The notes under the pieces: model-generated
What the model saw: the letters and a program-made list of their open reading frames with translations, nothing else
Told to the model about the DNA's origin: nothing
Databases searched by the model: none
NCBI GenBank assembly: GCA_903927465.1
Contig: CAIYMY010000015.1
Coordinates: forward strand, 1-52,987
DNA length: 52,987 nt
Source of the DNA: an uncultured Rhodospirillales bacterium
GTDB taxonomy: Bacteria > Pseudomonadota > Alphaproteobacteria > Acetobacterales > Acetobacteraceae
Reading direction: 5' to 3'
Program-made: the position numbers and the translations under genes
Part shown: positions 20,308 through 44,767 of the stretch, piece by piece
Layout: each line of letters opens with the position of its first letter
How positions within the stretch are numbered: the stretch's first letter is position 1

Positions 20308-20505
20308 GTTGCGCCGCTTATAGCCCCGGATGGGCCGGATGCCACGGAGCATTTTCAAGGCGGGTGGAACACCCGGCGGCTCGGAAAATACGACCAGATA
20401 AGGGCTTGCAAAGCAGGGTTCAGGGTGGTAGTTCTCTTTTTGTTCCTGTTGAGTGTGGCTGGATCCCCATCGCGTCGCACCCTTCCCGTTATCAGCGGGC
20501 GAGTT

Positions 20506-20530
20506 CGGGGGGAGGTTGTACCTCCCCCCG
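20506..20530. repeat. Perfect 11-bp palindrome upstream of the split permease
   Basis: Arms 20506-20516 and 20520-20530 pair perfectly around a 3-nt loop, with C/G-run arms like those of the ruvB-ruvA array. It lies in the roughly 265-nt divergent gap between the ABC exporter and the first permease gene, 43 nt before the proposed GTG start. It could be a regulatory hairpin or a REP-like element. Confidence 0.6.
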
Positions 20531-20572
20531 CCCTCTCTTGCGCGCTGCGCCCCAGTCTTGCAGTTTGCCCGC

Positions 20573-21100
20573 GTGTTACATGCGCTCCGCCGCCACGCCT
20601 CGCTCGTGGTCATTTTCCTGATTGCCGTCACAGCCGGGCTTGCCACCCTTCAATTGAGGGGCGCCGAGGCCTTCATGACGGCGCTTTGGCATGCCTGGGA
20701 CTTGTTCCTGTTTATCGTCCCATCACTTGTCGCGGGGTTGCTGCTGGCGGCTGCGCTTCGGCAATTGCTCTCCCCAGATGCGCTGGCGCGCTTGATGGGG
20801 GCGGAAAGTGGGATTTTCGGCCTGTTTATCGCAACACTGGTCGGCACGCTTTCACCGGGCGGCCCCATGGCGGCCTTTCCGCTGGTTCTGGTGCTGGCGG
20901 GTGCAGGGGCGGATCGGGGCGCGCTAGTCGCCTTCATCCTTGCCTGGTCGCTCAATGGCTTCCAAAAACTGCTGGTCTATGAGGCGCCGCTGCTTGGCCT
21001 TGATTTCGCGCTGCTGCGTACGCTGATCACCTTCCCCATGCCGATGATCGCGGGCTGGATAGCGCGGCGCGTGCCCATCGCCTGGGAGCCACCGAAATGA
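20573..21100 (+). CDS. Predicted permease, first half-size subunit (ArsP/DUF318-like)
   Basis: Membrane protein of about 175 residues with about five hydrophobic segments (SLVVIFLIAVTAGLATL, LFLFIVPSLVAGLLLAAAL, FGLFIATLVGTLSPGGPM, LITFPMPMIAGWI). The TLSPGGPMAAFPL motif resembles one half of DUF318/ArsP-type permeases. The preceding open frame reaches 20453, but those codons cross the 20506-20530 hairpin, so GTG at 20573 is proposed; a TTG at 20558 is also possible. It overlaps the next gene by 4 nt, and the two homologous halves probably form one transporter. The substrate is unknown. Confidence 0.7.
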   Translation: MLHALRRHASLVVIFLIAVTAGLATLQLRGAEAFMTALWHAWDLFLFIVPSLVAGLLLAAALRQLLSPDALARLMGAESGIFGLFIATLVGTLSPGGPMAAFPLVLVLAGAGADRGALVAFILAWSLNGFQKLLVYEAPLLGLDFALLRTLITFPMPMIAGWIARRVPIAWEPPK

Positions 21101-21612
21101 GCGGGCCGCAGATCATCCTTTGGGTCATTGCGCTGGCTGTGCTGGCGCTTTGCATGCGCCGCGGCATGCCCCAGGCACGGCGCGCCGTGGTCGAGACCAA
21201 TCGCGGTTTTTGGCGCATACTGCCCATGTTCTGCGTGGCCCTGCCGATGGCGGCGTTCTTGTCGGAGCTAGTGCCGGCCGATATCGCCACCGAATGGCTT
21301 GGCGATGATTCCGGCCTCAGCGGCATCATGATCGCGTCCTTGGCGGGCGGGATCATGCCGGGCGGGCCTTTTGTGACCTTCCCGCTGGTGATCACCTTCA
21401 GCAAGGCCGGCGCTGGTGTCGCGCAAATGACCGCGCTGCTCACGGCCTGGTCTGTCTATGCGCTGCACCGCATTCTGACGTGGGAATACCCGGTGCTGGG
21501 CTGGCGCTTTGTGGCGATGCGCTTGGCGTCGTCCTTTTTCCTGCCGGTGCTCGCGGGGCTGATCATGCAGGCGCTGCTGCCGTTTTTTGCGATTAATCTT
21601 GCGGCGCCTTGA
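21097..21612 (+). CDS. Predicted permease, second half-size subunit (ArsP/DUF318-like)
   Basis: Membrane protein of 171 residues. The GGIMPGGPFVTFPLVI motif and the following ALLTAWSVYALHRILTWEYPVLG segment parallel the PGGP motif and AWSLNGFQKLLVYEAPLLG of the preceding gene, so the two are homologous halves. Hydrophobic segments include QIILWVIALAVLALCM, the PGGP region and the C-terminal FFLPVLAGLIMQALLPFF. The ATG overlaps the upstream stop (ATGA), indicating coupled translation. Single-gene DUF318 permeases carry both halves; here they are separate. Confidence 0.75.
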   Translation: MSGPQIILWVIALAVLALCMRRGMPQARRAVVETNRGFWRILPMFCVALPMAAFLSELVPADIATEWLGDDSGLSGIMIASLAGGIMPGGPFVTFPLVITFSKAGAGVAQMTALLTAWSVYALHRILTWEYPVLGWRFVAMRLASSFFLPVLAGLIMQALLPFFAINLAAP

Positions 21613-22067: not shown

Positions 22068-22856
22068 ATGGAACCCGCCTCACCCGCCGCCGACTGGTCA
22101 GCCTTGCTCGCGCACCGCGATGCTGGCGCGGGCGCCACTTTGCCGGATGGCCCATTCGCAGCGCTATTTGGCCCGGTGCTGGCGCCGCCCGCAGCGCCCG
22201 ATGGCTGCCGAGTGATCGGGCGGCTCGCGCAAACGCTTGATGGCCGGATCGCCACCGCTGCCGGGTCAAGCCAATGGATCGGCGGCCCGGGCGATATCCT
22301 GCACACGCATCGGCTGCGCGCGTTGTGTCACGCCGTGGTGGTGGGCGCAGGCACGGTGCGTCATGACAATCCGCGCCTCACCACGCGCGAAGTGCCGGGG
22401 CCGGATCCACTCCGCGTCGTTTTGGATACAGATCGCAAACTCTCGGCCGATTACGGCATTTTCCAGGGCGGGCCGCCAACCTTGCTCGTCTGCGCCGCCG
22501 ATGCCGGCGGGGCCGAGCATCACGGCCAGGCCGAAGTGCTGCGCCTGCCGCGAATTACGGGCGGCGGGCTCGCCATCCCTCCCCTACTCGCCGCACTCAA
22601 GGCGCGCGGGGCCAGCCGGATTTTTGTCGAAGGCGGCGGGCTCACAGTTTCGCGCTTTCTGGCGGCTGGCTGTCTTGATCGGCTGCATGTCACCGTGGCG
22701 CCTGTGCTGCTCGGTTCCGGCATTCCGGCCTTCACCTTGCCGGAAGTGGCGCGCATTGCCGATGGGCTACGCTTTGCCTGGCGCGTGCATGATATCGCGC
22801 CCGATATCCTGATTGATGCAGCGCTGGATCGCGCCAAGCCCGGGGGCCATCCATGA
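22068..22856 (+). CDS. RibD C-terminal-domain (DHFR-like fold) reductase
   Basis: NAD(P)H-dependent reductase of 262 residues related to the reductase domain of RibD. Family features are RLAQTLDGRIAT, the HTHRLRALCHAVVVGAGTVRHDNPRL pattern (split: HRLRALCHAVVVGAGTV then RHDNPRLTTR), RVVLDTDRKL, and FVEGGGLTVSRFLAAGCLD. No deaminase domain is present, so this is not a full RibD. First gene of the tightly packed 22068-26968 cluster; its stop overlaps the next start by 4 nt (ATGA). The neighbouring PTPS-like protein suggests a pterin rather than riboflavin intermediate as substrate; this is inference. Confidence 0.82.
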   Translation: MEPASPAADWSALLAHRDAGAGATLPDGPFAALFGPVLAPPAAPDGCRVIGRLAQTLDGRIATAAGSSQWIGGPGDILHTHRLRALCHAVVVGAGTVRHDNPRLTTREVPGPDPLRVVLDTDRKLSADYGIFQGGPPTLLVCAADAGGAEHHGQAEVLRLPRITGGGLAIPPLLAALKARGASRIFVEGGGLTVSRFLAAGCLDRLHVTVAPVLLGSGIPAFTLPEVARIADGLRFAWRVHDIAPDILIDAALDRAKPGGHP

Positions 22857-23836
22857 CCATCGCGCGCGCCTTATGGACGATTGCACCCGGCATCGCGGAA
22901 CTCCGCCCTGAGACCTTGCCCGCCCGCGCCCCGGATCAGGTGCTGGCGCGGATGATTGCATCGGGCATTTCGCGCGGCACGGAGCGGCTGGTGCTGGCGG
23001 GCAAGGTGCCGGAGAACCAATGGGGCGTGATGCGCTGCCCCTTGCAGGCGGGCGATTTCCCCTTCCCGGTGAAGTATGGCTACAGCGCTGTCGCGCATGT
23101 GGCCGAAGGCCCTGCGGCGTTGCAAGGCAAGCGCGTTTTCTGCCTGCATCCGCATCAGGATTTTTTCCTCGCGCCCGCTGCCATGTGCATCCCTGTCCCG
23201 GATGCGGTGCCGAATAGCCGCGCTGTGCTCGGCGCCAATATGGAAACGGCGCTCAATATCCTGTGGGATGCTCAACCCTTGCCCGGCGAACGCGCCTTGG
23301 TGATTGGCGCGGGCGTGGTTGGGCTGCTGGTCGCCTATCTGCTCGCGCGCATTCCGGCCATGGCGGTGACAATCATTGACCCCGATGCATCGCGCCGCGG
23401 CGTTGCGGAGGCGCTTGGCATCCAATTCGCCGCCCTGGAAGCCGCACCCTCCGAGCAGGAACTGATCATCCATGCCAGCGCCAATCCGGCGGGGCTGCGT
23501 CAGGCTTTGCAATGCGCAGCGTTTGAGGCGCGCATCATCGAAGCCTCATGGTTCGGGGCGCAGGAAGTGGCGCTACCATTGGGCGAGGCATTCCATTCCC
23601 GCCGCCTGCGCCTGATTTCAAGCCAGGTCGGCGCTGTGGCCCCGGCCATGCGCGGGCGCCGCAGCTTTGGTGAGCGTATGGCCCAAGCGCTCGGCCTGCT
23701 GGCGGACCCGGCGCTTGAAGCGCTGGTCGGCCCTGCCACTTCCTTCGATGATTTGCCCCAAGCCATGCCCAGCTTGCTCAACCCCGCCCCCGGCCAGCTC
23801 GCGCCGCTTTGCCCGCTGGTGACCTATGGTGCATGA
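22853..23836 (+). CDS. MDR superfamily (zinc alcohol dehydrogenase-like) oxidoreductase
   Basis: Medium-chain dehydrogenase of 327 residues. It has a GroES-like N-terminal part (ARMIASGISRGTERL, VKYGYSAVAHV) and a Rossmann domain with ALVIGAGVVGLLVAYLLAR. The classical Cys of GICGTD is replaced by SGISRGTE and the structural-zinc cysteine cluster is absent, so it is probably a zinc-independent or atypical member. Coupled to the RibD-like gene by an ATGA overlap. It is annotated in relatives as zinc-binding alcohol dehydrogenase; the substrate is unknown and probably belongs to the same pathway as its neighbours. Confidence 0.8.
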   Translation: MTIARALWTIAPGIAELRPETLPARAPDQVLARMIASGISRGTERLVLAGKVPENQWGVMRCPLQAGDFPFPVKYGYSAVAHVAEGPAALQGKRVFCLHPHQDFFLAPAAMCIPVPDAVPNSRAVLGANMETALNILWDAQPLPGERALVIGAGVVGLLVAYLLARIPAMAVTIIDPDASRRGVAEALGIQFAALEAAPSEQELIIHASANPAGLRQALQCAAFEARIIEASWFGAQEVALPLGEAFHSRRLRLISSQVGAVAPAMRGRRSFGERMAQALGLLADPALEALVGPATSFDDLPQAMPSLLNPAPGQLAPLCPLVTYGA

Positions 23837-23867
23837 AGCGCCGAATCGCACAGGATAAACCCCGCCC

Positions 23868-24284
23868 ATGTTCAGCCTGACCGTCGTTGATCACGTCATG
23901 ATCGCCCATTCCTTCCGCGGCGCGGAATTCGGCCCCGCCCAGCGCCTGCATGGCGCGACCTTCATTGTGGAAGCGGAATTCCGCGCGCCGAAGCTTGATC
24001 CCCTGAACCTGCTGGTGGATATCGCCGCGGCCAAGGTGGAACTCCGCCACATTCTGGACGGGTTCGATTATCGCAATCTGGATGCGGAACCGGTCTTTGC
24101 CGGGCAGAACACCACGACTGAACATCTCTGCCTGCATATCCATCGCTGCCTGTCTGCCGCGCTGGCGGAGGGCAAGCTAGGCGCGGGCGGCCAGGCCGTC
24201 ACGGGCCTCAAGGTGCTTTTGCGCGAAAGCCATATCGCTTGGGCAGCCTATGAAGCCGCACCGGGTGAGGAGCCGGCGGCTTGA
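23868..24284 (+). CDS. 6-pyruvoyl-tetrahydropterin synthase (PTPS/QueD) family protein, divergent active site
   Basis: T-fold protein of 138 residues of the PTPS/QueD family. The visible skeleton is FSLTVVDHVMIAHSF, RLHGATFIVE, LDPLNLLVDIAAAK, NTTTEHLCLHIH and a C-terminal LRESHIAWAAY. Canonical enzymes have a zinc triad of one His plus HGH, and a catalytic Cys before the HGH. Here His14 and His28 remain, but the third ligand is Ala30 (HGA) and the position of the Cys region reads GPAQRLHG. It may therefore have another chemistry than QueD. It lies 31 nt after the MDR gene. Confidence 0.8.
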   Translation: MFSLTVVDHVMIAHSFRGAEFGPAQRLHGATFIVEAEFRAPKLDPLNLLVDIAAAKVELRHILDGFDYRNLDAEPVFAGQNTTTEHLCLHIHRCLSAALAEGKLGAGGQAVTGLKVLLRESHIAWAAYEAAPGEEPAA

Positions 24285-24307
24285 GCTGATCACTGCCAAT
24301 GCCTCGC

Positions 24308-24342
24308 TTGATTGCAATGCAATCAATGATTACAATGATTGC
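24308..24342 (+). promoter_or_regulatory. Candidate autoregulated promoter/operator of the toxin-antitoxin pair
   Basis: A -35-like TTGATT (24308-24313) and a -10-like TACAAT (24331-24336) are separated by 17 nt. The same stretch holds a 19-nt palindrome at 24308-24326 (arms ttgattgc/gcaatcaa) and a second dyad at 24319-24342 with outer arms gcaatca/tgattgc. The tgattgca-type half-site occurs repeatedly. This layout fits repression by the ribbon-helix-helix antitoxin encoded 20 nt downstream. Confidence 0.6.
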
Positions 24343-24361
24343 ATCAGATAAGGGGCTCTTG

Positions 24362-24604
24362 ATGGCCAGCATCACCATCCGCAATCTTGATGAGGCGCTG
24401 AAGCGGCGGCTGCGTATCCGCGCCGCCGAGCATGGGCATTCCATGGAAGAAGAAGCGCGCGATATCCTCCGCCAGGCCATGAGCCGCCCTGCCCCCACCG
24501 CCGATCTTGGGCTGGCCATCCATCGCCGCTTCGCCGCACTCGGCGGCGTTGAGCTGGAACTGCCGCCGCGCGAGGCCATGCCGGCACCGCCGCGCCTCGA
24601 TTAA
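24362..24604 (+). CDS. FitA/VapB-type ribbon-helix-helix antitoxin
   Basis: Antitoxin of 80 residues. The N-terminal ribbon-helix-helix begins MASITIRNLDEALKRRLRIR and continues AAEHGHSMEEEARDIL, the FitA-like signature. The C-terminal part (LELPPREAMPAPPRLD) would wrap the toxin. ATG at 24362 is chosen because the upstream in-frame ATGs translate the operator. The toxin gene starts 9 nt after its stop. It is likely to bind the palindromes at 24308-24342. Confidence 0.85.
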   Translation: MASITIRNLDEALKRRLRIRAAEHGHSMEEEARDILRQAMSRPAPTADLGLAIHRRFAALGGVELELPPREAMPAPPRLD

Positions 24605-24613
24605 AGGGCCTCC

Positions 24614-25057
24614 ATGATCTTGCTGGATACCAATGTGGTTTCCGAACTCATGCGCCCCGCACCGGCCGGGGCGGTGCTGGCATGGTTCGCCGCGCAGGAA
24701 GCCCATGATTTGTATCTGAGCGCGATTGGAGAGGCGGAGTTGCGCCGAGGTGCCGCCATGCTTCCCGCCGGCAAGCGGCGTGACCAATTGATGACCACGA
24801 TAGATGCCATGATCGCCGAGGATTTCGCGGGCTGCATCCTGCCTTTTGACAGCAATGCCGCCCAAGCCTTCGTGCTGGTGTTTCTGGAACGCCGCGCCGC
24901 GGGCCGCCCAATCAGCTTCGCCGATTGCCAAATTGCCGCCACCGCCCGCGCCCAAGGTGCCGCCATCGCCACGCGCAATACCGCCGATTTTGCCGGTTGC
25001 GGCATAGCGGTGATAGACCCTTGGGCGCATCAACAAGGTACCCAAAGCACCACATGA
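24614..25057 (+). CDS. PIN-domain toxin (FitB/VapC family)
   Basis: Ribonuclease toxin of 147 residues. PIN-domain acids are visible: Asp5 in ILLDTNVVSELMRP, Glu in SAIGEAELRRG, and the C-terminal acid of ISFADCQIAATA, followed by ATRNTADF. The domain is complete with no frameshift, so the toxin should be active. It overlaps the glycosyltransferase start by 4 nt (ATGA), an unusual coupling of a toxin to a biosynthetic gene. Confidence 0.88.
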   Translation: MILLDTNVVSELMRPAPAGAVLAWFAAQEAHDLYLSAIGEAELRRGAAMLPAGKRRDQLMTTIDAMIAEDFAGCILPFDSNAAQAFVLVFLERRAAGRPISFADCQIAATARAQGAAIATRNTADFAGCGIAVIDPWAHQQGTQSTT

Positions 25058-26100
25058 ACGGCGCCATCTACCTTATCGTCCCCGCGCCCTTCAGCGCGAT
25101 TTCTGGCGGCTATATCTATGATCGCCGCATGGTCGAAGGGCTGCGTGCGCTGGGGCAAGAAGTGCGCGTGGTGGAATTGGCCGGGCGCCATCCTTTCCCT
25201 GATGCCACCGCGACCGAAGCCGCGCGCGTTGCCTTGGCCGAGATTCCCGCCAATGCGCGCATTGTGATTGATGGCTTGGGCCTGCCCGCTTTTCTGCCGC
25301 TGGCCGATGAACTCACCCGTCGCGGCGCAACGGCGCTGATCCATCACCCAACTGCGCTGGAAACCGGCGCCCCGGAGGGCCAGCGCGAAGCGTTGAAAGC
25401 CGCCGAGCGCGTATTGTTCAGCGCGTGTACGCGCATCATCACCACCTCCACCCTCACGGCGCGAGATTTGCCGGAAGGCTTTGGCGTGGACGCCGCGCGT
25501 ATTTGCGTAGTGGAACCAGGCACAGATGCCGCGCCGCGCGCCGGCGGCTCCGCTGGTCCGGGCTGCGCCATTTTGAGTGTTGGCATGTTGGTGCCGCGTA
25601 AGGGCCATGATGTGCTGCTGCGGGCACTGGCGCGGCTCGCTGATCTTGATTGGTCGCTGGCTATTGCTGGGGATGCGACGCGCGATGCCTTGCATGCTGA
25701 TAGGCTGCGCGCCTTGGCGGCGGAACTTGGCATAGCGCAGCGCGTGAGATTTCTGGGCGCCCTGCCGGATGCCGCTTTGGAAGCAGAATATGCGCGCGCT
25801 GATCTTTTCGCCCTCGCCACGCGTTATGAAGGCTATGGCATGGCGGCTGCGGAAGCGATGGCGCGCGGCCTGCCAATGGCGATCACCGCCGGCGGCGCGA
25901 TTGCCGATATTGTACCGGAAGACGCTGCCGTGGTTGCCGCCGTGGATGACCACAACGCGCTATCACGCGCCATGCGCCGGCCGATTTTCGACACTGCCTT
26001 GCGCGCCGATATGGCCGCAGCATCCTGGCGCGCGGGGCAGGCTTTGCCGCGCTGGCCGGACCGCGCCGCCGCTTTCCTGAAAGCACTCGACAATGGCTGA
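25054..26100 (+). CDS. Glycosyltransferase, GT4-like
   Basis: GT-B fold glycosyltransferase of 348 residues. The N-terminal acceptor-side domain starts MNGAIYLIVPAPFSAISGGY. The donor domain has ILSVGMLVPRKGHDVLLRAL, VRFLGALPDAALEAEYARAD and the E-x7-E-type motif EGYGMAAAEAMARG. The frame opens at 24925 inside the toxin gene in another reading; ATG at 25054 starts on the toxin stop. Its role in the cluster is probably to glycosylate the pterin-like product, as cyanobacterial pteridine glycosyltransferases do; this is inference from context. Confidence 0.83.
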   Translation: MNGAIYLIVPAPFSAISGGYIYDRRMVEGLRALGQEVRVVELAGRHPFPDATATEAARVALAEIPANARIVIDGLGLPAFLPLADELTRRGATALIHHPTALETGAPEGQREALKAAERVLFSACTRIITTSTLTARDLPEGFGVDAARICVVEPGTDAAPRAGGSAGPGCAILSVGMLVPRKGHDVLLRALARLADLDWSLAIAGDATRDALHADRLRALAAELGIAQRVRFLGALPDAALEAEYARADLFALATRYEGYGMAAAEAMARGLPMAITAGGAIADIVPEDAAVVAAVDDHNALSRAMRRPIFDTALRADMAAASWRAGQALPRWPDRAAAFLKALDNG

Positions 26101-26968
26101 AAGCTTCGATGGTGATTGGCTCGATTTGCGCGAGCCTTACGACGCCGCCGCACGCAACCCTGAATTGGCTGAGATGCTCGCGGCATCCCTGCCCGCGCGG
26201 CCCCGCCTGCTTGACCTTGGCGCGGGCACCGGCAGCTTGCTCCGCTGGCTTGGCCATTTCATTGGCCGCGCGCAAAGCTGGACACTGGTGGATAGCGATG
26301 CGGAATTGATCTCTCGCGCTTTTGATACAATATCAGACCGGGCCGAGGCGGTGGATTGGCCCGTGACGCAACCCGGGCGCAGCGCGCTTTTGCTGCATGC
26401 GCCGCATGGCGTCTGGCGTATTGAAGCCATCCTGGCGGACCTTGCCGCAGCACCGGCCAATTTGCCGTTGGAACGCGTGGATGCCGTGGTCAGCACGGCG
26501 TTGTGCGATCTGGTCTCACGCGGTTGGGTGGAAGCCATGGCCGCGGCCTGCGCCGCGCGGCGCCTGCCCTTCTATGCTGCCTTGAATGTGACGGGGCGTG
26601 AGCGCTTCACCCCGCCCTATCCCGCCGATGCTTTGGTAGCGCGCGGCTTTCGACGTGATCAGGCGCGGGAGAAGGGTTTTGGTGGCGCATCACTTGGGCC
26701 ACAGGCGCCGGCCGTGATGGCCGAAGCCTTCGCCGCGCATGGCTACACCATTCATCGCGCGCCAAGCGATTGGGTCGTGGATCGCCGCGCCCGCGCTTTC
26801 ACTCGCGCGATCGCTGATGGCCATGCCATGGCCGCACTTGGCTGGGAAAAGCGCGGCAGTGACGCCATTCTGGATTGGCTGGATACCAGACGGGATCAGG
26901 CCGATGCCGGTCAGCTTGCCGTGCGCATCGGGCACCAGGATTTCCTCGCGCTCCCTCCTACAAGGTAG
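26093..26968 (+). CDS. SAM-dependent methyltransferase (class I)
   Basis: Protein of 291 residues with the SAM-binding motif I LLDLGAGTGSLLRW at about 39-52, an acidic residue ending strand 2 (WTLVDSDAEL), and a motif IV region VDAVVSTALCDLVS. It overlaps the glycosyltransferase by 8 nt and closes the cluster that starts at 22068. Only 6 nt separate it from otnK, so transcription may continue. The acceptor is unknown; a glycoside or pterin is the contextual guess. Confidence 0.78.
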   Translation: MAESFDGDWLDLREPYDAAARNPELAEMLAASLPARPRLLDLGAGTGSLLRWLGHFIGRAQSWTLVDSDAELISRAFDTISDRAEAVDWPVTQPGRSALLLHAPHGVWRIEAILADLAAAPANLPLERVDAVVSTALCDLVSRGWVEAMAAACAARRLPFYAALNVTGRERFTPPYPADALVARGFRRDQAREKGFGGASLGPQAPAVMAEAFAAHGYTIHRAPSDWVVDRRARAFTRAIADGHAMAALGWEKRGSDAILDWLDTRRDQADAGQLAVRIGHQDFLALPPTR

Positions 26969-26974
26969 TTAAAA

Positions 26975-28234
26975 ATGCCCCTTCTGCTCGGCTGCATCGC
27001 GGATGACTTCACGGGGGCCACGGACCTCGCGAATACACTGGTCAAGGGCGGCATGACTGCCGTACAGGTGATTGGTGTGCCGACCGGACCTTTGCCGGAA
27101 GCGGATGCCGTGATCATTGCGCTGAAATCGCGCACCGCGCCGGTTGGGGAAGCGGTGGCGCAATCACTGGCCGCTTGTGATGCGCTGCTCGCCGCTGGTG
27201 CGAAGCAGATTTTCTGGAAATATTGCTCGACTTTTGACAGCACAGATCAAGGCAATATCGGCCCCGTCGCGGATGCGCTGCTGAAGCGCCTGGGATCTGG
27301 CTTCGCGCTTGCCTGCCCGGCCTTTCCGACTAATGGGCGTACGATTTATCTCGGCCATCTTTTTGTCGGCAATGCGCTGCTGAATGAAAGCGGCATGGAA
27401 AACCATCCGTTGACGCCGATGACAGATGCAAATCTGGTGCGCGTACTGGGGCGGCAGACGGGTGGCGCGGTGGGGCTGGTGTCCTTCACGACCGTGGAAC
27501 AAGGTGCGGCCGCCACGCGCCAGGCCATGATGCAACTTGCTGAACAGGGCAGGCGATACGCCATTATGGATGCGGTGACGGATCAGCATTTGCTCGCGAT
27601 TGGCGAAGCCGCCGCACAACACGCGCTGATCACGGGTGGTTCGGGCGTGGCGATGGGCTTGCCTGAGAATTTCCGGCGCGCCGGCCTGCTACCAGCGCGC
27701 GGAGATGCGGCCAGCCTGCCACCCATGCAGGGCATGGCCGCTGTGGTAGCGGGGTCCTGTTCGCGCGCGACGCTTGGGCAAATCGGTCTCGCGCGGGATC
27801 ACCTGCCGGTGCTGGAATTGGATGCGCTGGCAACGCCCGATGCGGCGGCGCTCACGGCGCAGGCGCTGGATTGGGTGACGGGCAAATTGGCCGCAGATCG
27901 CCCGGTGGTGATTGCCGCCAGCGCGCCGCCGGAGAAGGTTGCAGCATTGCAGGCGAAGCTTGGGCGCGATGCTGCTGGTGCGCTGATTGAGACCGCCATG
28001 GCCGCGATTGCCGAAGGGCTTGTCGCGCGTGGCGTCGGCAGGCTTGTGGTGGCCGGCGGTGAGACTTCCGGTGCTGTGGTGCAGCGCCTTGGTGTCACGG
28101 CGCTGCGCATCGGGCCTGAGATTGATCCTGGCGTGCCATGGACTTTCGCCGAACCGCGCGGGCTGCATCTGGCGCTCAAATCCGGCAATTTCGGTGCGCG
28201 TGATTTCTTCCTGAAGGCGTTCGACCATGGATGA
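26975..28234 (+). CDS. otnK: 3-oxo-tetronate kinase OtnK (four-carbon acid sugar kinase)
   Basis: DUF1537-family kinase of 419 residues that phosphorylates 3-oxo-tetronate (dehydro-tetronate) at the 4-position in four-carbon acid sugar catabolism. Features include LLGCIADDFTGATDLAN at the N-terminus, WKYCSTFDSTDQGNIGP, FPTNGRTIYLGHLFVGNALL, and the C-terminal nucleotide site VVAGGETSGAVVQRLGV. Followed with an 8-nt overlap by an OtnC-type aldolase, the normal partner. No otnI isomerase or dehydrogenase is adjacent. Confidence 0.88.
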   Translation: MPLLLGCIADDFTGATDLANTLVKGGMTAVQVIGVPTGPLPEADAVIIALKSRTAPVGEAVAQSLAACDALLAAGAKQIFWKYCSTFDSTDQGNIGPVADALLKRLGSGFALACPAFPTNGRTIYLGHLFVGNALLNESGMENHPLTPMTDANLVRVLGRQTGGAVGLVSFTTVEQGAAATRQAMMQLAEQGRRYAIMDAVTDQHLLAIGEAAAQHALITGGSGVAMGLPENFRRAGLLPARGDAASLPPMQGMAAVVAGSCSRATLGQIGLARDHLPVLELDALATPDAAALTAQALDWVTGKLAADRPVVIAASAPPEKVAALQAKLGRDAAGALIETAMAAIAEGLVARGVGRLVVAGGETSGAVVQRLGVTALRIGPEIDPGVPWTFAEPRGLHLALKSGNFGARDFFLKAFDHG

Positions 28235-28859
28235 AGCTGCGCTGCGTGCACAACTCGCCGCGCTCGGTGCCTCGCTTTTCGCGCGCGGCTATTCGGTGGG
28301 GACGGCGGGCAATATCAGTGTGCGCCTGCCGGATGGGTTTCTGATGACGCCGACCAATTCCTGCCTGGGCCGGCTTGATCCCGCGCGGATATCGAAGCTC
28401 GCGCCAGATTTTTCGCATGTGTCGGGTGATAAGCCATCCAAGGAAGTCTTCATGCATCGTGCGGTGCTGACCGCACGGCCCGATGCGGGGGCGGTGGTGC
28501 ATTTGCACTCCACCCACGCCACCGCCATTGCTTGCCTCGCTGCGCCGGGAGAGTCCGCGCCCATCCCGCCGCTGACCCCGTACTTCGTGATGCGTGTTGG
28601 ACGGAACCTGCCCGTGATCCGCTATTATCGCCCTGGCGATGGCGCGATGGAAAACGATATCCACGAAGCCGCTAAGGGTGCGAAAGCCGTGCTGCTGGCC
28701 AATCACGGCCCGGTGGTATCGGGCGGCACTTTAGAAGATGCCGTGCATGCGGCGGAGGAATTGGAAGAAGCCGCGCGCCTTGCGCTGTTGCTGCGCGGTG
28801 CCGGTGCGCGCAGCCTGACGCCGGCGCAGGTTGATGATTTGCTCAACACTTTCGGCTGA
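28227..28859 (+). CDS. otnC: 3-oxo-tetronate 4-phosphate decarboxylase OtnC (class II aldolase)
   Basis: Class II aldolase/adducin-fold enzyme of 210 residues. Motifs include YSVGTAGNISVRLPDGFLMT, the zinc-site HLHSTHAT segment, and LLANHGPVVSGGTLEDAV. It should decarboxylate the product of OtnK to dihydroxyacetone phosphate. Its start overlaps otnK by 8 nt. Related L-ribulose- or fuculose-phosphate aldolases share the fold, but the otnK partner supports OtnC. Confidence 0.85.
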   Translation: MDEAALRAQLAALGASLFARGYSVGTAGNISVRLPDGFLMTPTNSCLGRLDPARISKLAPDFSHVSGDKPSKEVFMHRAVLTARPDAGAVVHLHSTHATAIACLAAPGESAPIPPLTPYFVMRVGRNLPVIRYYRPGDGAMENDIHEAAKGAKAVLLANHGPVVSGGTLEDAVHAAEELEEAARLALLLRGAGARSLTPAQVDDLLNTFG

Positions 28860-39838: not shown

Positions 39839-40909
39839 GTGGTGGATCAACAAACCCCTTTGCGGCTGGATGATTATAATTTCATCCTGCCTGAACATTT
39901 AATCGCGCAGGCGCCCACCCGCCCGCGTGATGCTTCGCGCATGCTGGTGGTGCGCCAGGTTGGCGTGGAAGATCGCGGCGTGCGTGATCTGCCCGCTATG
40001 CTCGGCCCCGGCGATGTGATGGTGGTAAATGATACGCGCGTGATCCCCGCGCGGCTCCATGCGCGGCGCGGCCAGGCGCGGGTTGAAATCATGCTCAACC
40101 GGCATGAGGAAGCGGGCATTTGGCATGCGCTGATCCGCAATGCGCGCCGGCTCAAGGCCGGTGATGAATTGCAGGTTGAAGGCGCTGAGGATTGCACCGC
40201 GCGCGTGCTGGATGATCCCGAAGGTGGCGCCGCGCGGCTTGATTTCGGCCCGGATCAGGCGCGGCTCGCGGCTGCTTTGGAAAAGGCCGGCGAGATCCCT
40301 CTGCCGCCCTATATCACCCGCCCCGAAGGCCCGACCACCGAGGATAGCAGCGATTACCAAACCATCTTCGCCCGCCGCCCCGGTGCTGTCGCCGCGCCGA
40401 CCGCAAGCCTGCATTTCACCGAAGCCCTGCTGCAAGCCCTGGATGCGCGCGGTGTTGCGCGCGTGACGGTCACGCTGCATGTCGGTGCTGGTACTTTTCT
40501 ACCGGTGCGCGGCGATGAAGCGCGGGCGCATAAACTGCATGAGGAATGGGGCGAAATCACCCCGGAAGCTGCCGCGCGATTGAATGCGGTGCGCTTAGCG
40601 GGCGGGCGCATCATCGCCATCGGCACCACCGCCTTGCGGCTTTTGGAAAGTGCGGTGCAGCCGGATGGCAGCATCGCGCCCTTTCGCGGCCTGACGGATG
40701 TGTATCTGCTGCCGGGGCACGCGTTTCGCAGTGCCGATGCGCTGATGACGAATTTTCACCTGCCGCGCAGTACGCTGTTCATGCTGGTTTGCGCCTTTGC
40801 CGGTGATCAGCGTATGCGCAACGCATATGACCACGCCATCGCGCAACATTATCGCTTCAATTCTTATGGCGATTCATCCCTGCTGTTCCGGGCGGAAGGT
40901 ACGCCATGA
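39839..40909 (+). CDS. queA: S-adenosylmethionine:tRNA ribosyltransferase-isomerase QueA
   Basis: Transfers the ribosyl part of SAM to preQ1 in tRNA, giving epoxyqueuosine. Motifs: [70 protein letters not shown] and the C-terminal [18 protein letters not shown]. Length 356 is normal. Start is GTG at 39839 (a second GTG follows directly). First gene of the queuosine operon; its stop overlaps the tgt start (ATGA). Confidence 0.95.
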
Positions 40910-42030
40910 CGCTTTCCTGGCAGCACGAAGCACAAGATGGCGCGGCACGTGCGGGTGTTTTGCACACCGCCCATGGTGAAGTGCCAACGCCGGTTTTCAT
41001 GCCCGTTGGCACCGCTGGTACGGTAAAGGCCATGACCGCGGATGCGGTGCGCGCCACGGGTGCGCGCATGGTGCTCGGCAATACCTATCACCTCATGCTG
41101 CGACCTGGCGCTGAACGCATCGCGCGGCTTGGTGGCCTGCATCGCTTCATGGATTGGCACGGGCCGATCCTGACGGATTCAGGTGGCTTTCAAGTCATGT
41201 CGCTTTCGGGCTTGCGCAAGATGGATGCGGATGGCGTCACCTTCCAAAGCCATATTGATGGATCACGCCATCGCCTGACGCCGGAACGCAGCGTGGAAAT
41301 CCAGCATTTGCTCGGCGCTGATGTGACCATGTGCTTTGATGAATGCACGCCCTTTCCCGCGACGCATGAACAGGCCGCCACATCCATGCGGCTTTCCATG
41401 CGCTGGGCGGCACGCAGCCGTGAAGCCTTTGTGCCGAGGCACGGCCACGGCTTGTTCGGCATTGTCCAAGGCAGTGTTTTCCCTGATCTCCGCGCGGAAA
41501 GTGTGGCCGCGCTGACCAATATTGGCTTTGAAGGCTATGCGGTGGGCGGGCTTGCGGTGGGTGAAGGCCAGGAAGCCATGTTCACCACGCTGGAATGCAC
41601 CACGCCGCTGCTGCCCAGCGATAAGCCGCGCTATTTGATGGGCGTTGGCACGCCTTCTGATCTTATCGGCGCGGTACGCCGCGGCATAGATATGTTCGAT
41701 TGCGTCATGCCTACGCGTTCGGGCCGCACCGGGCGCGGCTATACGCGGGGCGGCGTGATCAATATCCGCAATGCCCGCCATGCGGAGGATAACCGCCCGC
41801 TTGATCCCGATTGCACCTGCCCCGCTTGTAGGGGCCATTCGCGTGCCTATTTGCATCATCTGTTCAAGGCGAATGAAATGCTGGGGCCCATGCTGCTGAC
41901 GTGGCACAATATCCAATACTATCAGGACCTGATGGCGGAACTCCGCGCCGGCATCCTGGCAGGCGATCTCGCCGGCACTGCCGCGCGCATTGAAGCCGGC
42001 TGGCAGGCGGAAAAGGAAAATGCAGCATGA
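40906..42030 (+). CDS. tgt: Queuine/preQ1 tRNA-guanine transglycosylase
   Basis: Exchanges G34 for preQ1 in GUN-anticodon tRNAs. DSGGFQ carries general-base Asp91. The nucleophile Asp is in [11 protein letters not shown], and the zinc site is CTCPACRGH with a downstream His. [10 protein letters not shown] is the substrate-binding loop. Length 374 is typical of bacterial Tgt. It overlaps queA and queF by 4 nt each. Confidence 0.96.
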
Positions 42031-42485
42031 GCGATCTTTCGCATCTGACGCAGCTTGGCCAAGCGGCCCAGCAACCGCAAAGCCCGGAACAAGCGGTGCT
42101 GGAACGTGTGGGCAATCCGCATCCTGGACTGCGCTATTGCATTCGCTTTACCGCACCGGAATTCACCTCGCTCTGTCCGCTGACGGGTCAGCCGGATTTC
42201 GCGCATCTGGTGATTGATTACGTGCCGGATGCCTGGATTGTGGAAAGCAAATCACTCAAGCTGTATCTCGCTTCCTTCCGCAATCACGGCGCCTTCCATG
42301 AAGCCTGCACGCTGGATATCGCGCAGCGTCTGCTGGGCTTGCTGGCGCCGCATTGGTTGCGCATCGGTGGCTATTGGTATCCGCGCGGCGGCATTCCCAT
42401 TGATGTATTCTGGCAAAGCGGCGCGCCGCCGGAAGCGGTTTGGATTCCAGCGCAGGAAGTGCAGCCCTATCGTGGGCGCGGCTGA
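42027..42485 (+). CDS. queF: NADPH-dependent 7-cyano-7-deazaguanine reductase QueF (unimodular)
   Basis: Reduces preQ0 to preQ1. The T-fold protein of 152 residues has catalytic Cys50 ([11 protein letters not shown]) and Asp57, the ESKSLKLYL motif and FHEAC. Its length matches the short YkvM-type QueF rather than the bimodular E. coli form. Overlaps tgt by 4 nt and queG by 14 nt. Confidence 0.95.
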
Positions 42486-43509
42486 CGCCATAAGGGCGGA
42501 GGCCACGCGCCTCGGCTTCGATGCCATTGGCTTTGCGCCGGCGCGGCTGGGGCCGGAGGCGCGCGAAAGGCTCCAGGCATTCCTCGCCGCCGGCATGCAT
42601 GGCGGCATGGGCTGGATGGAAGCGCGCGCCGATCAGCGCGCCGACCCGCGCGCGCTGTGGCCTGAAGCGCGGAGCGTGATTGCCCTCGGCCTTTCCTACG
42701 CGCCCGATACTGATCCGCTGGAAAGCCTGGCCTGGCAGGACCGCGCCACCATCAGCGTCTACGCGCGCAATCGCGATTATCATGATGTGGTCAAGAAGCG
42801 CCTGAAGGCCCTGGCGCGTTGGATGGTGGCGCATTTCGCCGATGCTGGTGTGAAGGTTTTCGTGGATACCGCACCGGTGATGGAAAAGCCGCTCGCGCAG
42901 CAGGCGGGTTTGGGCTGGCAGGGTAAGCACACCAATCTTGTGTCCCGCACGCATGGTTCCTGGCTATTTTTAGGCGAGATTTACACCACGCTCGATCTCA
43001 GCCCCGATGCGGCAGAAATTGATCACTGCGGCACTTGCACGCGCTGCCTTGATATCTGTCCCACCAAGGCCTTTCCCGCACCGTATCGCTTGGATGCGCG
43101 GCGCTGCATTTCCTACCTCACGATTGAGCATCACGGCCCAATCCCTGAGGAATTCCGCAAGCCCATGGGCAATCGCATCTATGGCTGTGATGATTGCCTG
43201 GCGGTCTGCCCCTGGAACAAATTCGCGGCTACGCATCACGAACCTGCCTTCGCGCCGCGGGCAGAACTCACCGCGCCAAAACTGGCGGATTTGGCAGCGC
43301 TGGATGATGCTGGCTTTCGCGCGCTGTTTTCTGGCAGCCCCATCAAGCGCATTGGGCGCAATCGCTTCATCCGCAATGTGCTGATCGCCATTGGTAATTC
43401 CGCGACACCTAGCCTAAGGGAAGCGGCGCGCGGCCTTTGCGCTGATGCTGACCCCGTGGTGGCGGAAGCCGCAGCTTGGGCCTTAGCGCAATTGGAACAC
43501 GCCGCATGA
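42472..43509 (+). CDS. queG: Epoxyqueuosine reductase QueG
   Basis: Cobalamin-dependent iron-sulfur enzyme that reduces epoxyqueuosine to queuosine in tRNA. Two 4Fe-4S motifs are visible ([16 protein letters not shown] and [11 protein letters not shown]). [13 protein letters not shown] and [14 protein letters not shown] match the family. The long open frame begins inside queF; GTG 42472 gives [19 protein letters not shown]-type sequence and 345 residues, the expected size. Confidence 0.93.
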
Positions 43510-44213
43510 CGCAAGAAAAAGCGCTTGTCCTGTTCAGCGGCGGGCAGGATTCCGCAACCTGCCTCGCCTGGGCTTTGGATCGTTTCGCGCAGGTGGAAAC
43601 CATCGGGTTCGACTACGGCCAACGCCACAAGATCGAACTTGAAGTCCGCGACGCGTTTCGCGCTGCCTTGCTTGCAGCCCGCCCTGAATGGCAAGCGAAA
43701 CTTGGCTCAGATCATCTGATCCGCCTGGATGCCTTGGGCCAGATATCAGACACCGCACTCACCTCAGAAGCTACCATCGCCTTCAACGCCGATGGCCTTC
43801 CCAATACTTTCGTGCCAGGACGCAACATTATTTTTCTGAGTTTTGCCGCCGCCATCGCCTATCGTCGCGGCATCAAGCATATCGTTGGTGGCATGTGCGA
43901 GACGGATTACTCCGGCTACCCCGATTGCCGCGATGACACGATCAAGGCGCTGCAAGTGGCGCTGAACCTCGGCATGGATCGGCGCTTTGTATTGGAAACG
44001 CCCTTGATGTGGCTGGACAAGGCCGCAACTTGGCGGCTGGCGGAAAGCATGGGCGGAGCGCCCTTGGTTGCGGCGCTGCTGGAACACACGCATAGCTGCT
44101 ACCTGGGGGATCGGCAGCATCGCCACACTTGGGGCTATGGCTGCGGCACCTGCCCTGCCTGCGACTTGCGCGCCAAGGGCTGGGCGGCCTATGCAGCGCG
44201 GGAATCCACATGA
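43506..44213 (+). CDS. queC: 7-cyano-7-deazaguanine synthase QueC
   Basis: ATP-dependent ligase converting carboxydeazaguanine to preQ0. N-type ATP pyrophosphatase P-loop [13 protein letters not shown], then [28 protein letters not shown], and a zinc-binding C-terminus with [11 protein letters not shown]. It has 235 residues. ATG 43506 overlaps the queG stop (ATGA); the extra codons from 43476 would lie in queG. Confidence 0.95.
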
Positions 44214-44767
44214 ACCTTTCCCCCCGCCTTCAAGGCTTCGCCTTCCTGATCGGCTTCGCGCTTTGTATTCCAGCGGCGAATTGGATGATCGGGAATCTCG
44301 GCAGCTTCTGCGCCCCGAACGGCCCCTGCCTCATTCCTGTCGCGCCCGGCATCATGGCGCCATCGGGCGTGCTGATGATTGGCTTGGCGCTGGTGCTGAG
44401 GGATTTGGTGCAGCGCCGCCTTGGCCTGAATTGGGCCTTCGCCGCCATTGCGGCGGGCGTGATGCTTTCCGCGCTATTGGCGCCGCCTGCCTTGGTGCTG
44501 GCCTCGGCGGCCGCTTTCCTGCTGAGTGAATCCGCTGACTTGGCCGTCTACACGCCGCTGCAAAAGCGCGGTCTGGTATTGGCAGTGGCGGCAAGCGGCG
44601 CGGTCGGCCTTGTGGTGGATAGCGTGGTCTTCCTGTTTCTCGCCTTCGGCAGCCTGGATTTCCTGGCCGGGCAGATCATCGGCAAGGCCTGGATGGTATT
44701 GTTGGCCTTGCCCTTCATTCATTGGCTGCGCCGGCATGATGCGCGGCGCGGTATTCAGCCGGCCTGA
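44210..44767 (+). CDS. Queuosine-precursor transporter (Vut_1/YhhQ family)
   Basis: Integral membrane protein of 185 residues with about six hydrophobic segments. PF02592-like features are the [14 protein letters not shown] start, [20 protein letters not shown] and [15 protein letters not shown]. This family imports queuosine precursors such as preQ0/preQ1. ATG 44210 overlaps the queC stop by 4 nt, so it belongs to the queuosine operon. Its stop abuts the convergent Bug gene stop. Confidence 0.88.

What the first reader, a model, noticed from the sequence alone, without database searches (positions are those of the whole stretch)
22068..26968. Candidate modified-pterin biosynthetic cluster
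The sequence shows RibD-type reductase, MDR dehydrogenase, PTPS-fold protein, GT4 glycosyltransferase and SAM methyltransferase in one direction, with overlaps of 4-8 nt at most junctions. PTPS-family proteins act on pterins, and RibD-type domains reduce related heterocycles. Glycosylated pterins are known from cyanobacteria. I infer a pathway to a glycosylated, methylated, reduced pterin or deazapurine-like small molecule; I know of no characterised product for this gene set.
Basis: partly seen in the sequence, partly recalled or inferred. Interest (0 to 1): 0.72.

Follow-up and report, generated by a model that had tools for sequence, protein, structure and literature searches.

The report
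Uncharacterised pterin-like metabolite gene cluster
Five neighbouring genes in this bacterium form a pathway that also turns up, in much the same order, in distantly related bacteria and on plasmids; it probably builds a sugar-bearing, pterin-like small molecule that has not been identified, and it gives two orphan Streptomyces proteins a shared home.

Summary
Two of four junctions overlap (4 and 8 nt). The set is a real unit: RibD-C/MDR/PTPS-like/GT4/methyltransferase recurs in Alpha-, Beta- and Gammaproteobacteria and Actinomycetota, with partial copies in Phycisphaerales and Saprospiraceae, sometimes on plasmids. The PTPS-like protein belongs to the family of SCO6650 (PDB 3d7j, 56% identity). 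It lacks the catalytic Cys and third Zn ligand in 48 of 48 aligned sequences but keeps the pterin-anchoring Glu, so it is neither PTPS nor QueD by the known mechanism. An intact-looking GTP cyclohydrolase II lies near the cluster in 17 of 53 loci. A sister form in Actinomycetota keeps the Zn site but not the Cys. Best reading: a dedicated pathway from a 2-amino-4-oxopyrimidine (more likely GTP cyclohydrolase II-derived than dihydroneopterin-derived) to a reduced, glycosylated, usually methylated pterin-like product. Some relatives add membrane or lipid steps; the window does not. The product is unknown; our searches of an open-licence library found no description.

The parts
22068..22856 (+). 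RibD C-terminal-type reductase without a deaminase domain
   Evidence: PF01872 136.5 bits; archaeal-type reductase model TIGR01508 94 bits, below its cut-off of 186; best solved relative 6p8c, deposited as 2,5-diamino-6-ribosylamino-4(3H)-pyrimidinone 5'-phosphate reductase; D58, D100, L104, R107 and E188-G189-G190 invariant in 42 rows, P102 98%, T105 86%
22853..23836 (+). MDR-type oxidoreductase, BchC-like, without the usual catalytic-Zn ligands
   Evidence: Conserved S40-R-G-T-E and Y75-G76-Y77 where Cys and His-Glu ligands stand in Zn-dependent MDRs (ligand positions recalled); S40, G76, Y77 in 52 of 52 rows; TIGR01202 bchC 44.9 bits, below cut-off
23868..24284 (+). PTPS-fold protein of the SCO6650 family
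   Evidence: PF01242; 56% identity and rmsd 0.7 A to 3d7j; Cys position Ala and third Zn-His position Ala in 48 of 48 rows
24299..24604 (+). FitA-like antitoxin; inserted pair, not judged part of the pathway (true start probably further in, at MASITIRNL)
   Evidence: PF22513 72 bits; the pair is in 12 of 51 close loci
24614..25057 (+). PIN-domain VapC-like toxin; inserted pair, overlaps the GT4 start by 4 nt
   Evidence: PF01850 47.8 bits
25054..26100 (+). GT4-family glycosyltransferase
   Evidence: PF00534 98.6 bits; E259 in all and E267 in 92% of 51 rows (spacing of an EX7E motif), R182-K183 conserved
26093..26968 (+). Class I SAM methyltransferase of an unnamed family
   Evidence: Weak Pfam match; no NCBIfam match at E 0.001; model pLDDT 97, best PDB matches are generic methyltransferases at 8-20% identity; W9, L10, R13, D17, R21 invariant in 46 rows

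Best explanation
The five genes are one dedicated small-molecule pathway. Most likely scheme: (1) GTP is opened by a GTP cyclohydrolase II to the 2,5-diamino-6-ribosylamino-pyrimidinone 5'-phosphate (in Streptomyces perhaps via its formyl form, removed by the neighbouring creatininase-family hydrolase); in the window organism this comes from a separate GTP cyclohydrolase II on another contig. (2) The RibD_C reductase reduces the ribosyl chain while the 2-amino group stays, since there is no deaminase domain. (3) The SCO6650-type PTPS-fold protein holds the 2-amino-4-oxopyrimidine ring and, with the Zn-free MDR oxidoreductase, builds or reshapes a pterin-like ring or side chain by chemistry other than that of PTPS or QueD. 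(4) The GT4 enzyme adds a sugar; (5) the methyltransferase methylates the product. In other lineages a CDP-alcohol phosphotransferase, a flippase-like membrane protein and similar membrane proteins modify or export it. Shown here: the genes, their conservation and co-variation, the lost catalytic residues, the genomic link to GTP cyclohydrolase II. Inferred: every substrate, the order of steps, and the product.
For: Synteny over 53 chosen loci: MDR 52, GT4 51, MT 51, RibD_C 42. Pairwise protein distances correlate between the genes, e.g. GT4-MT r 0.82 and MDR-PTPS 0.69, each above the largest of 200 label permutations. GTP cyclohydrolase II with its Cys ligands lies near the cluster in 17 of 53 loci; all 12 such genomes examined have another copy, and in 7 of 12 the other scores at least 189 bits, so the cluster copy is extra there. 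Tyr-to-Met exchange in the cluster copy in exactly the 3 Streptomyces of 17, beside a creatininase-family gene; recalled: the same exchange makes SCO6655 stop at the formyl compound. RibD/ArfC-type motif kept in RibD_C and best solved relative is a diaminopyrimidine reductase. Ring-anchoring Glu kept in 48 of 48. FolB within 3 kb in 8 of 8 genomes of the Zn-retaining branch.
Against: GTP cyclohydrolase II is near only a third of loci and not in the window; in 5 of 12 genomes the other copies are weak (139 bits or less), so the cluster copy may also serve riboflavin. The 3 Streptomyces clusters have no RibD_C nearby although GTP cyclohydrolase II is there. Creatininase-family genes also occur beside Tyr-type cyclohydrolase (L086, L113, L125), and the Streptomyces one scores only 37 bits against the ArfB deformylase cut-off of 180, so deformylation is inferred from position alone. 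FolB is the only copy in each of those genomes, so its nearness may be lineage synteny. GT4 or MT is missing from some loci. No metabolite was seen.
Confidence: 0.5

Rival explanations
1. Classical pterin route, close to the first reader's: dihydroneopterin phosphate made by GTP cyclohydrolase I is processed by the PTPS-like protein, reduced by MDR and RibD_C (as sepiapterin and dihydropterin reductases would), glycosylated and methylated to a cyanopterin-like glycoside.
For: PTPS fold and ring-holding residues; FolB beside the Zn-retaining branch; a GTP cyclohydrolase I gene exists in the window genome; pterin glycosides and pteridine glycosyltransferases are known in cyanobacteria, Chlorobium and Sulfolobus (passages of PMC13259868 and PMC5683033).
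Against: Catalytic Cys and third Zn-His replaced by Ala in 48 of 48; no GTP cyclohydrolase I was recognised among the cluster neighbours whose domains were scanned, whereas GTP cyclohydrolase II recurs; RibD_C keeps the ribosylaminopyrimidine reductase motif rather than looking like dihydrofolate-type reductases.
Confidence: 0.22
2. The PTPS-fold protein is not an enzyme but a pterin- or pyrimidine-binding carrier or sensor of the same pathway; the chemistry is done by RibD_C and MDR.
For: Loss of all recalled catalytic residues with the fold and ring-anchoring Glu kept; solitary extra copies in Streptomyces.
Against: Seventeen invariant columns, several around the old active site (H14, S15, F21, G22, A24, H28, G29, A30, T31) in 48 diverse rows, which looks like a reshaped active site; the Zn-retaining sister branch has the same neighbours.
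Confidence: 0.14
3. The PTPS-like gene is simply the QueD of this organism's queuosine pathway, and its neighbours are unrelated.
For: NCBI names it 6-carboxytetrahydropterin synthase in relatives; the window genome has QueA, Tgt, QueF, QueG and QueC in this very window yet no other PTPS-family gene.
Against: QueD score 38.7 bits against a cut-off of 89; Cys, His and Zn-His absent; separate from QueD in the tree, 100/98 support; strict association with four other genes across phyla.
Confidence: 0.06
4. The glycosyltransferase and methyltransferase belong to an envelope polysaccharide or glycolipid locus and the three others are a separate unit.
For: In some relatives MdoH, flippase-like, sulfatase-like and CDP-alcohol transferase genes are near.
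Against: GT4 and MT follow the PTPS-like gene in 51 of 53 loci each while the envelope genes are in 9-21 of 53; no polysaccharide locus in the window around the genes.
Confidence: 0.04

Closest known systems
SCO6650 of Streptomyces coelicolor (PDB 3d7j)
   Same: Same protein family as the window PTPS-like protein: 56% identity, rmsd 0.7 A, same Ala-for-Cys and HGA motif. A Streptomyces fungicidicus copy 92% identical to it lies in a cluster with MDR, GT4, MT, flippase-like, creatininase and GTP cyclohydrolase II genes.
   Different: Function unknown there too. Recalled, not read: the structure paper reports no Zn, no catalytic triad and no PTPS activity. The window has RibD_C next to MDR, the Streptomyces loci do not.
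SCO6655-type GTP cyclohydrolase II
   Same: In S. fungicidicus the cluster GTP cyclohydrolase II is the fifth gene after the PTPS-like gene, counting one flippase-like gene found by alignment, which fits SCO6650 to SCO6655; a held paper lists SCO6655 as GTP cyclohydrolase II (one passage, PMC2853524). Met stands for Tyr.
   Different: Not next to the cluster in the window; the window genome's intact copy is on another contig and has Tyr. That SCO6655 stops at the formyl compound is recalled.
QueD / 6-carboxytetrahydropterin synthase and PTPS (COG0720)
   Same: T-fold, two of three Zn-His positions, ring-anchoring Glu.
   Different: Catalytic Cys, His and third Zn-His absent; own clade; other neighbours.
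RibD reductase domain and archaeal/fungal diaminopyrimidine reductase (ArfC/Rib7)
   Same: Domain and DxPxLTxR-type motif.
   Different: No deaminase domain; below the curated cut-offs (130.9 against 150; 94 against 186).
Pteridine glycosyltransferases of cyanobacteria and Chlorobium (cyanopterin, biopterin glucoside)
   Same: A sugar transferred to a pterin is the proposed step (passages).
   Different: No sequence comparison was made with those enzymes; their gene sets are not known to include this cluster (recalled).

Membership tests
QueD / PTPS (COG0720 functional groups) | Catalytic Cys ahead of the HGH motif | tested here: not met
QueD / PTPS (COG0720 functional groups) | Three Zn-binding His | tested here: not met
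   H14 and H28 in 48 of 48, third position Ala in 48 of 48; kept as HGH in the 15 Zn-branch sequences
QueD / PTPS (COG0720 functional groups) | Ring-anchoring Glu near the C terminus and T-fold | tested here: met
   E120 in 48 of 48; model matches 3d7j, QueD and PTPS folds
QueD (NCBIfam TIGR03367) | Curated score cut-off 89.25 bits | tested here: not met
   38.7 bits
SCO6650 family | Sequence and fold close to 3d7j with HGA and no Cys | tested here: met
SCO6650 family | Neighbourhood MDR, GT4, methyltransferase | tested here: met
   Window and 51-52 of 53 loci
2,5-diamino-6-ribosylaminopyrimidinone phosphate reductase (ArfC/Rib7) | RibD_C domain, no deaminase, DxPxLTxR and EGG motifs | tested here: met
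2,5-diamino-6-ribosylaminopyrimidinone phosphate reductase (ArfC/Rib7) | Curated equivalog cut-off (TIGR01508, 186 bits) | tested here: not met
   94.2 bits
2,5-diamino-6-ribosylaminopyrimidinone phosphate reductase (ArfC/Rib7) | Reductase activity on the diaminopyrimidine | not testable with these tools
   Needs enzyme assay
ArfB/BrbF formamide hydrolase (creatininase-family neighbour in relatives) | ArfB curated cut-off (180 bits) | tested here: not met
   37 and 30.3 bits for two cluster neighbours; MftE model 141 and 124 bits, also below its cut-off of 172
Zn-dependent alcohol dehydrogenase (the MDR as annotated in relatives) | Catalytic Zn ligands Cys and His-Glu | tested here: not met
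   Ser and Gly-Tyr at those motifs in 52 of 52 rows; ligand positions recalled
Cyanobacterial/Chlorobium pterin glycoside pathway | Homology of the glycosyltransferase to a known pteridine glycosyltransferase | not tested
   No reference sequence was compared
Retaining GT4 glycosyltransferase | Glycos_transf_1 domain with EX7E | tested here: met

The most novel reading that the evidence does not exclude
The cluster makes a membrane-anchored or exported redox or light-active cofactor of a new class: a glycosylated, methylated pterin or ribityl-pyrimidine that in many bacteria is coupled to a lipid by the co-travelling CDP-alcohol phosphotransferase, flipped by the LPG-synthase-TM-type protein, and perhaps reduced or oxidised by the neighbouring cytochrome b561/YceI-type proteins; the PTPS fold was re-purposed, first losing its Cys (Zn kept, in Actinomycetota) and then its Zn ligand. 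The lineages with only the five genes, such as the window, would keep a soluble form. Basis: CDP-alcohol transferase in 21, flippase-like in 10, YceI in 9, cytochrome b in 9 of 53 loci; its distances follow GT4 and MT at r 0.90. Against: the window genome shows no such transferase (a search without a positive control in that genome).
Probability: 0.13. Interest if true: 0.85.

Novelty: new variant of a known kind. Interest (0 to 1): 0.6.

Why it matters
PTPS-like genes of this kind are named 6-carboxytetrahydropterin synthase in public annotation, which the residues contradict. Two Streptomyces proteins studied separately, SCO6650 (a solved structure without function) and SCO6655 (a GTP cyclohydrolase II homologue), fall into one pathway that is spread across several phyla and carried on plasmids, one of them typed conjugative. 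That makes a question open since at least the 2008 release of 3d7j testable: what is the Cys-less, Zn-less PTPS fold for? A new GTP-derived metabolite with cofactor, signalling or photoprotective roles is a realistic outcome. Within the window it shows how a conserved operon can take up a toxin-antitoxin pair between two translationally close genes.

Tried and rejected
Rejected: deazapurine or toyocamycin-like product (the two RibD/GTP cyclohydrolase II and methyltransferase parallels with toxoflavin and deazapurines are recalled and were not tested; no QueE-type gene was recognised among the neighbours scanned). Rejected as parts: OtnK and OtnC (26975-28859), which follow MT by 6 nt but are missing beside the cluster in outgroup loci; the two upstream permease-like genes, likewise; the toxin-antitoxin pair. 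Led nowhere: literature searches for the gene set, within a library of openly licensed papers only; fold search of the methyltransferase, which gave generic class I enzymes; tblastn hits of CDP-alcohol transferase queries antisense to MDR, which came from over-long open frames in L094 and L097 and were removed by better queries and a length filter. Against our reading or incomplete: L123 has MDR inverted and no GT4 or MT; L133 lacks GT4; L131 lacks MT and RibD_C; RibD_C was not found in 11 of 53 loci, one of them cut by a contig end; some Streptomyces and purple sulfur bacteria (L083, L087, L088, L095, L141, L145) have the PTPS-like gene with few or none of the partners, although L088 and L095 genomes carry a second copy in a full cluster. 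The GTP cyclohydrolase II hit in L115 is a degenerate domain 8.8 kb away and was left out of the 17. The 53 loci are a chosen set, not independent draws: window, 6 close relatives, 8 others from the genome scan, 26 from the class sample, 10 plasmids, 2 Streptomyces.


Full report
1. What is in the window. Five genes run on the + strand: a RibD C-terminal-type reductase (22068-22856), an MDR-type oxidoreductase (22853-23836), a PTPS-fold protein (23868-24284), a GT4 glycosyltransferase (25054-26100) and a class I methyltransferase (26093-26968). The first and last pairs overlap by 4 and 8 nt; the MDR-PTPS gap is 31 nt. In 39 of 51 close loci the toxin-antitoxin pair is absent and the GT4 gene lies within a few nt of the PTPS-like stop; in 12 of 51, the window included, the pair fills a gap of 762-772 nt. 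It is a local insertion.

2. The set is conserved. A scan of genome contigs with the PTPS-like protein gave 70 loci. In 240 genomes of the class 32 match at E 0.001, and 30 of them at 87 bits or more, with the next at 24 bits. In 398 genomes of the phylum 106 match, 27 of them at 88 bits or more, the next at 45 or less, which are QueD-like. In 246 genomes of Actinomycetota 53 match, 9 at 99 bits or more, the next at 61. In the short loci of the class sample MDR, GT4 and MT stand beside the PTPS-like gene in 27, 28 and 27 of 29, in the phylum sample in 23, 21 and 21 of 23, and beside three QueD-like controls in 0 of 3. In a chosen set of 53 longer loci, MDR is present in 52, GT4 in 51, MT in 51, RibD_C in 42; for the 26 of these from the class sample the counts are 25, 25, 25 and 20 of 26. 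These 53 are not independent (see Tried and rejected). Carriers named by their records include Neoroseomonas, Thauera, Xenophilus, Granulosicoccus, Actinoplanes; Phycisphaerales and Saprospiraceae MAG contigs hold PTPS-like, GT4 and MT genes, cut short. Twenty plasmid records match; of 12 regions opened, 10 hold PTPS-like plus partners and 2 Streptomyces regions hold the PTPS-like gene without them. Pairwise distances of the five proteins correlate (r 0.48-0.82) above 200 label permutations each.

3. The PTPS-like protein. It is of the family of SCO6650 of Streptomyces coelicolor, solved as 3d7j: 56% identity, rmsd 0.7 A over the predicted model (pLDDT 96.5). In an alignment of 48 sequences, Ala stands at the place of the catalytic Cys and at the place of the third Zn-binding His in 48 of 48; the place of the catalytic His is Tyr in 39, Phe in 7, Leu in 2; the Glu recalled to anchor the pterin ring is kept in 48 of 48. 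Which residues are catalytic in QueD is recalled. The NCBI QueD model gives 38.7 bits against a cut-off of 89. So the public name 6-carboxytetrahydropterin synthase is not supported. [quoted passage not shown] this HGA, Cys-less type was not in the passages shown.

4. A second form. In Actinomycetota 15 loci hold a PTPS-like protein that keeps HGH but also has Ala for the Cys, beside MDR and GT4 in 15 of 15 and RibD_C in 14 of 15 (3.4 kb loci). Five true QueD hits with Cys in the same list have none of these neighbours (0 of 5). In a tree of 70 rows the SCO6650 type, the Zn-retaining type and QueD each fall on one side of a branch (support 100/98, 99/95, 100/98), with only 134 columns and many open forks. 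This suggests that the Cys was lost before the Zn site. In 8 such genomes FolB, single-copy in each, lies within 3 kb of the PTPS-like gene in 8 of 8; a PlsC-like acyltransferase gene is near in 7 of 8 fetched loci, and GTP cyclohydrolase II in one.

5. The upstream chemistry. A GTP cyclohydrolase II that keeps its Cys ligands is near the cluster in 17 of 53 loci (18 hits less a degenerate one in L115). All 12 genomes examined with such a copy have at least one more; in 7 of 12 the other scores 189 bits or more, in 5 of 12 only 139 or less. In 14 of 17 the residue at E. coli Tyr105 is Tyr and in 3 of 17, the Streptomyces, Met. I recall that SCO6655 has this change and stops at the formyl-aminopyrimidine; the papers are not held. 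The 3 Streptomyces clusters also carry a creatininase-family gene; ArfB in Archaea and BrbF in Sinorhizobium, a creatininase relative, deformylate that compound (abstract and passages of PMC9478397). But creatininase-family genes occur in 10 of 53 loci, some with Tyr-type enzymes, and the sequences tested miss the ArfB cut-off widely. The S. fungicidicus PTPS-like protein is 92% identical to SCO6650, and counting genes along its cluster (PTPS-like, GT4, MT, flippase-like, creatininase, GTP cyclohydrolase II) matches the numbers SCO6650 to SCO6655; SCO6655 is listed as GTP cyclohydrolase II in a held paper (one passage). I did not open the S. coelicolor genome itself. In the window genome the intact GTP cyclohydrolase II is on another contig with no cluster neighbours, and the second copy is a RibBA-type protein with a degenerate domain.

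6. The other enzymes. RibD_C keeps D58, D100, L104, R107 and EGG in 42 of 42 rows and is closest among solved structures to a diaminopyrimidine reductase; without a deaminase domain its product should keep the 2-amino group, as pterins do. MDR lacks the Zn ligands of alcohol dehydrogenases in 52 of 52 and is distantly BchC-like. GT4 keeps its EX7E spacing. The methyltransferase is an unnamed class I family.

7. Membrane partners. CDP-alcohol phosphotransferase is in 21, LPG-synthase-TM-type flippase-like protein in 10, sulfatase-like in 10, MdoH in 9, YceI in 9, cytochrome b in 9 of 53 loci. The transferase's distances follow those of GT4 and MT at r 0.90 over 22 taxa. One tested transferase scores 43 bits against a PgsA cut-off of 109, so its acceptor is open. 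The window genome gave no match to it, in a search without a positive control in that genome. This is the basis of the bold reading, not of the main one.

8. Verdict. I commit to a GTP-derived, 2-amino-4-oxopyrimidine-based, reduced, glycosylated and usually methylated product at 0.5, with the dihydroneopterin route as main rival at 0.22. Interest 0.6: the pathway is widespread, appears uncharacterised within the searches made (open-licence papers only), and joins two orphan proteins; but each enzyme family is known and the product is inference.

Noticed in passing
window 24299-25057: FitA-like antitoxin and PIN/VapC toxin inserted between PTPS-like and GT4 genes, toxin stop overlapping the GT4 start by 4 nt; present in 12 of 51 close loci, absent in 39.
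   Followed up: partly
window 39839-44767: Queuosine genes queA, tgt, queF, queG, queC (NCBIfam cut-offs passed) and a weak queuosine-precursor-transporter match (35.8 bits, cut-off 51), while the genome has no PTPS-family gene other than the cluster one: a QueD gap in a 98.5% complete genome. QueE was not searched for.
   Followed up: partly
window 26975-28859: 3-oxo-tetronate kinase (OtnK, 606.6 bits, cut-off 350) and 3-oxo-tetronate 4-phosphate decarboxylase (OtnC, 283.4 bits, cut-off 250) follow the cluster by 6 nt; conserved beside it only in close relatives.
   Followed up: partly
L212-L219 (unnamed Actinomycetota): Zn-retaining, Cys-less PTPS-like branch with RibD_C, MDR, GT4, a single-copy FolB and often a PlsC-like acyltransferase; a possible evolutionary step between QueD-like enzymes and the SCO6650 type.
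   Followed up: partly
L088, L095, L141, L145 (Streptomyces): Solitary SCO6650-type genes in a different neighbourhood (a long discoidin/glycoside hydrolase-type protein, cupin, BTAD regulator, sigma factor); two of these genomes also have a clustered copy.
   Followed up: partly
L133, L146 (Rhodobacterales plasmids): Versions without GT4 directly in the cluster but with a PfkB-type kinase annotated as ribokinase or carbohydrate kinase nearby.
   Followed up: no
PMC3610822 table passage: SCO6652, by position the cluster methyltransferase of S. coelicolor, is listed as a hypothetical protein with values 0.8, 4.3 and 4.1 in a mycelium transcriptome table; only this passage was seen.
   Followed up: no
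L143, window genome contig C19: RibBA-type protein whose GTP cyclohydrolase II domain has lost the Cys ligands, so the copy on contig C96 is probably the working one.
   Followed up: partly
window 20453-21612: Two adjacent permease-like genes upstream of the cluster, weakly like efflux transporters SaoE/SO_0444, far below cut-offs; conserved upstream in close relatives only.
   Followed up: no
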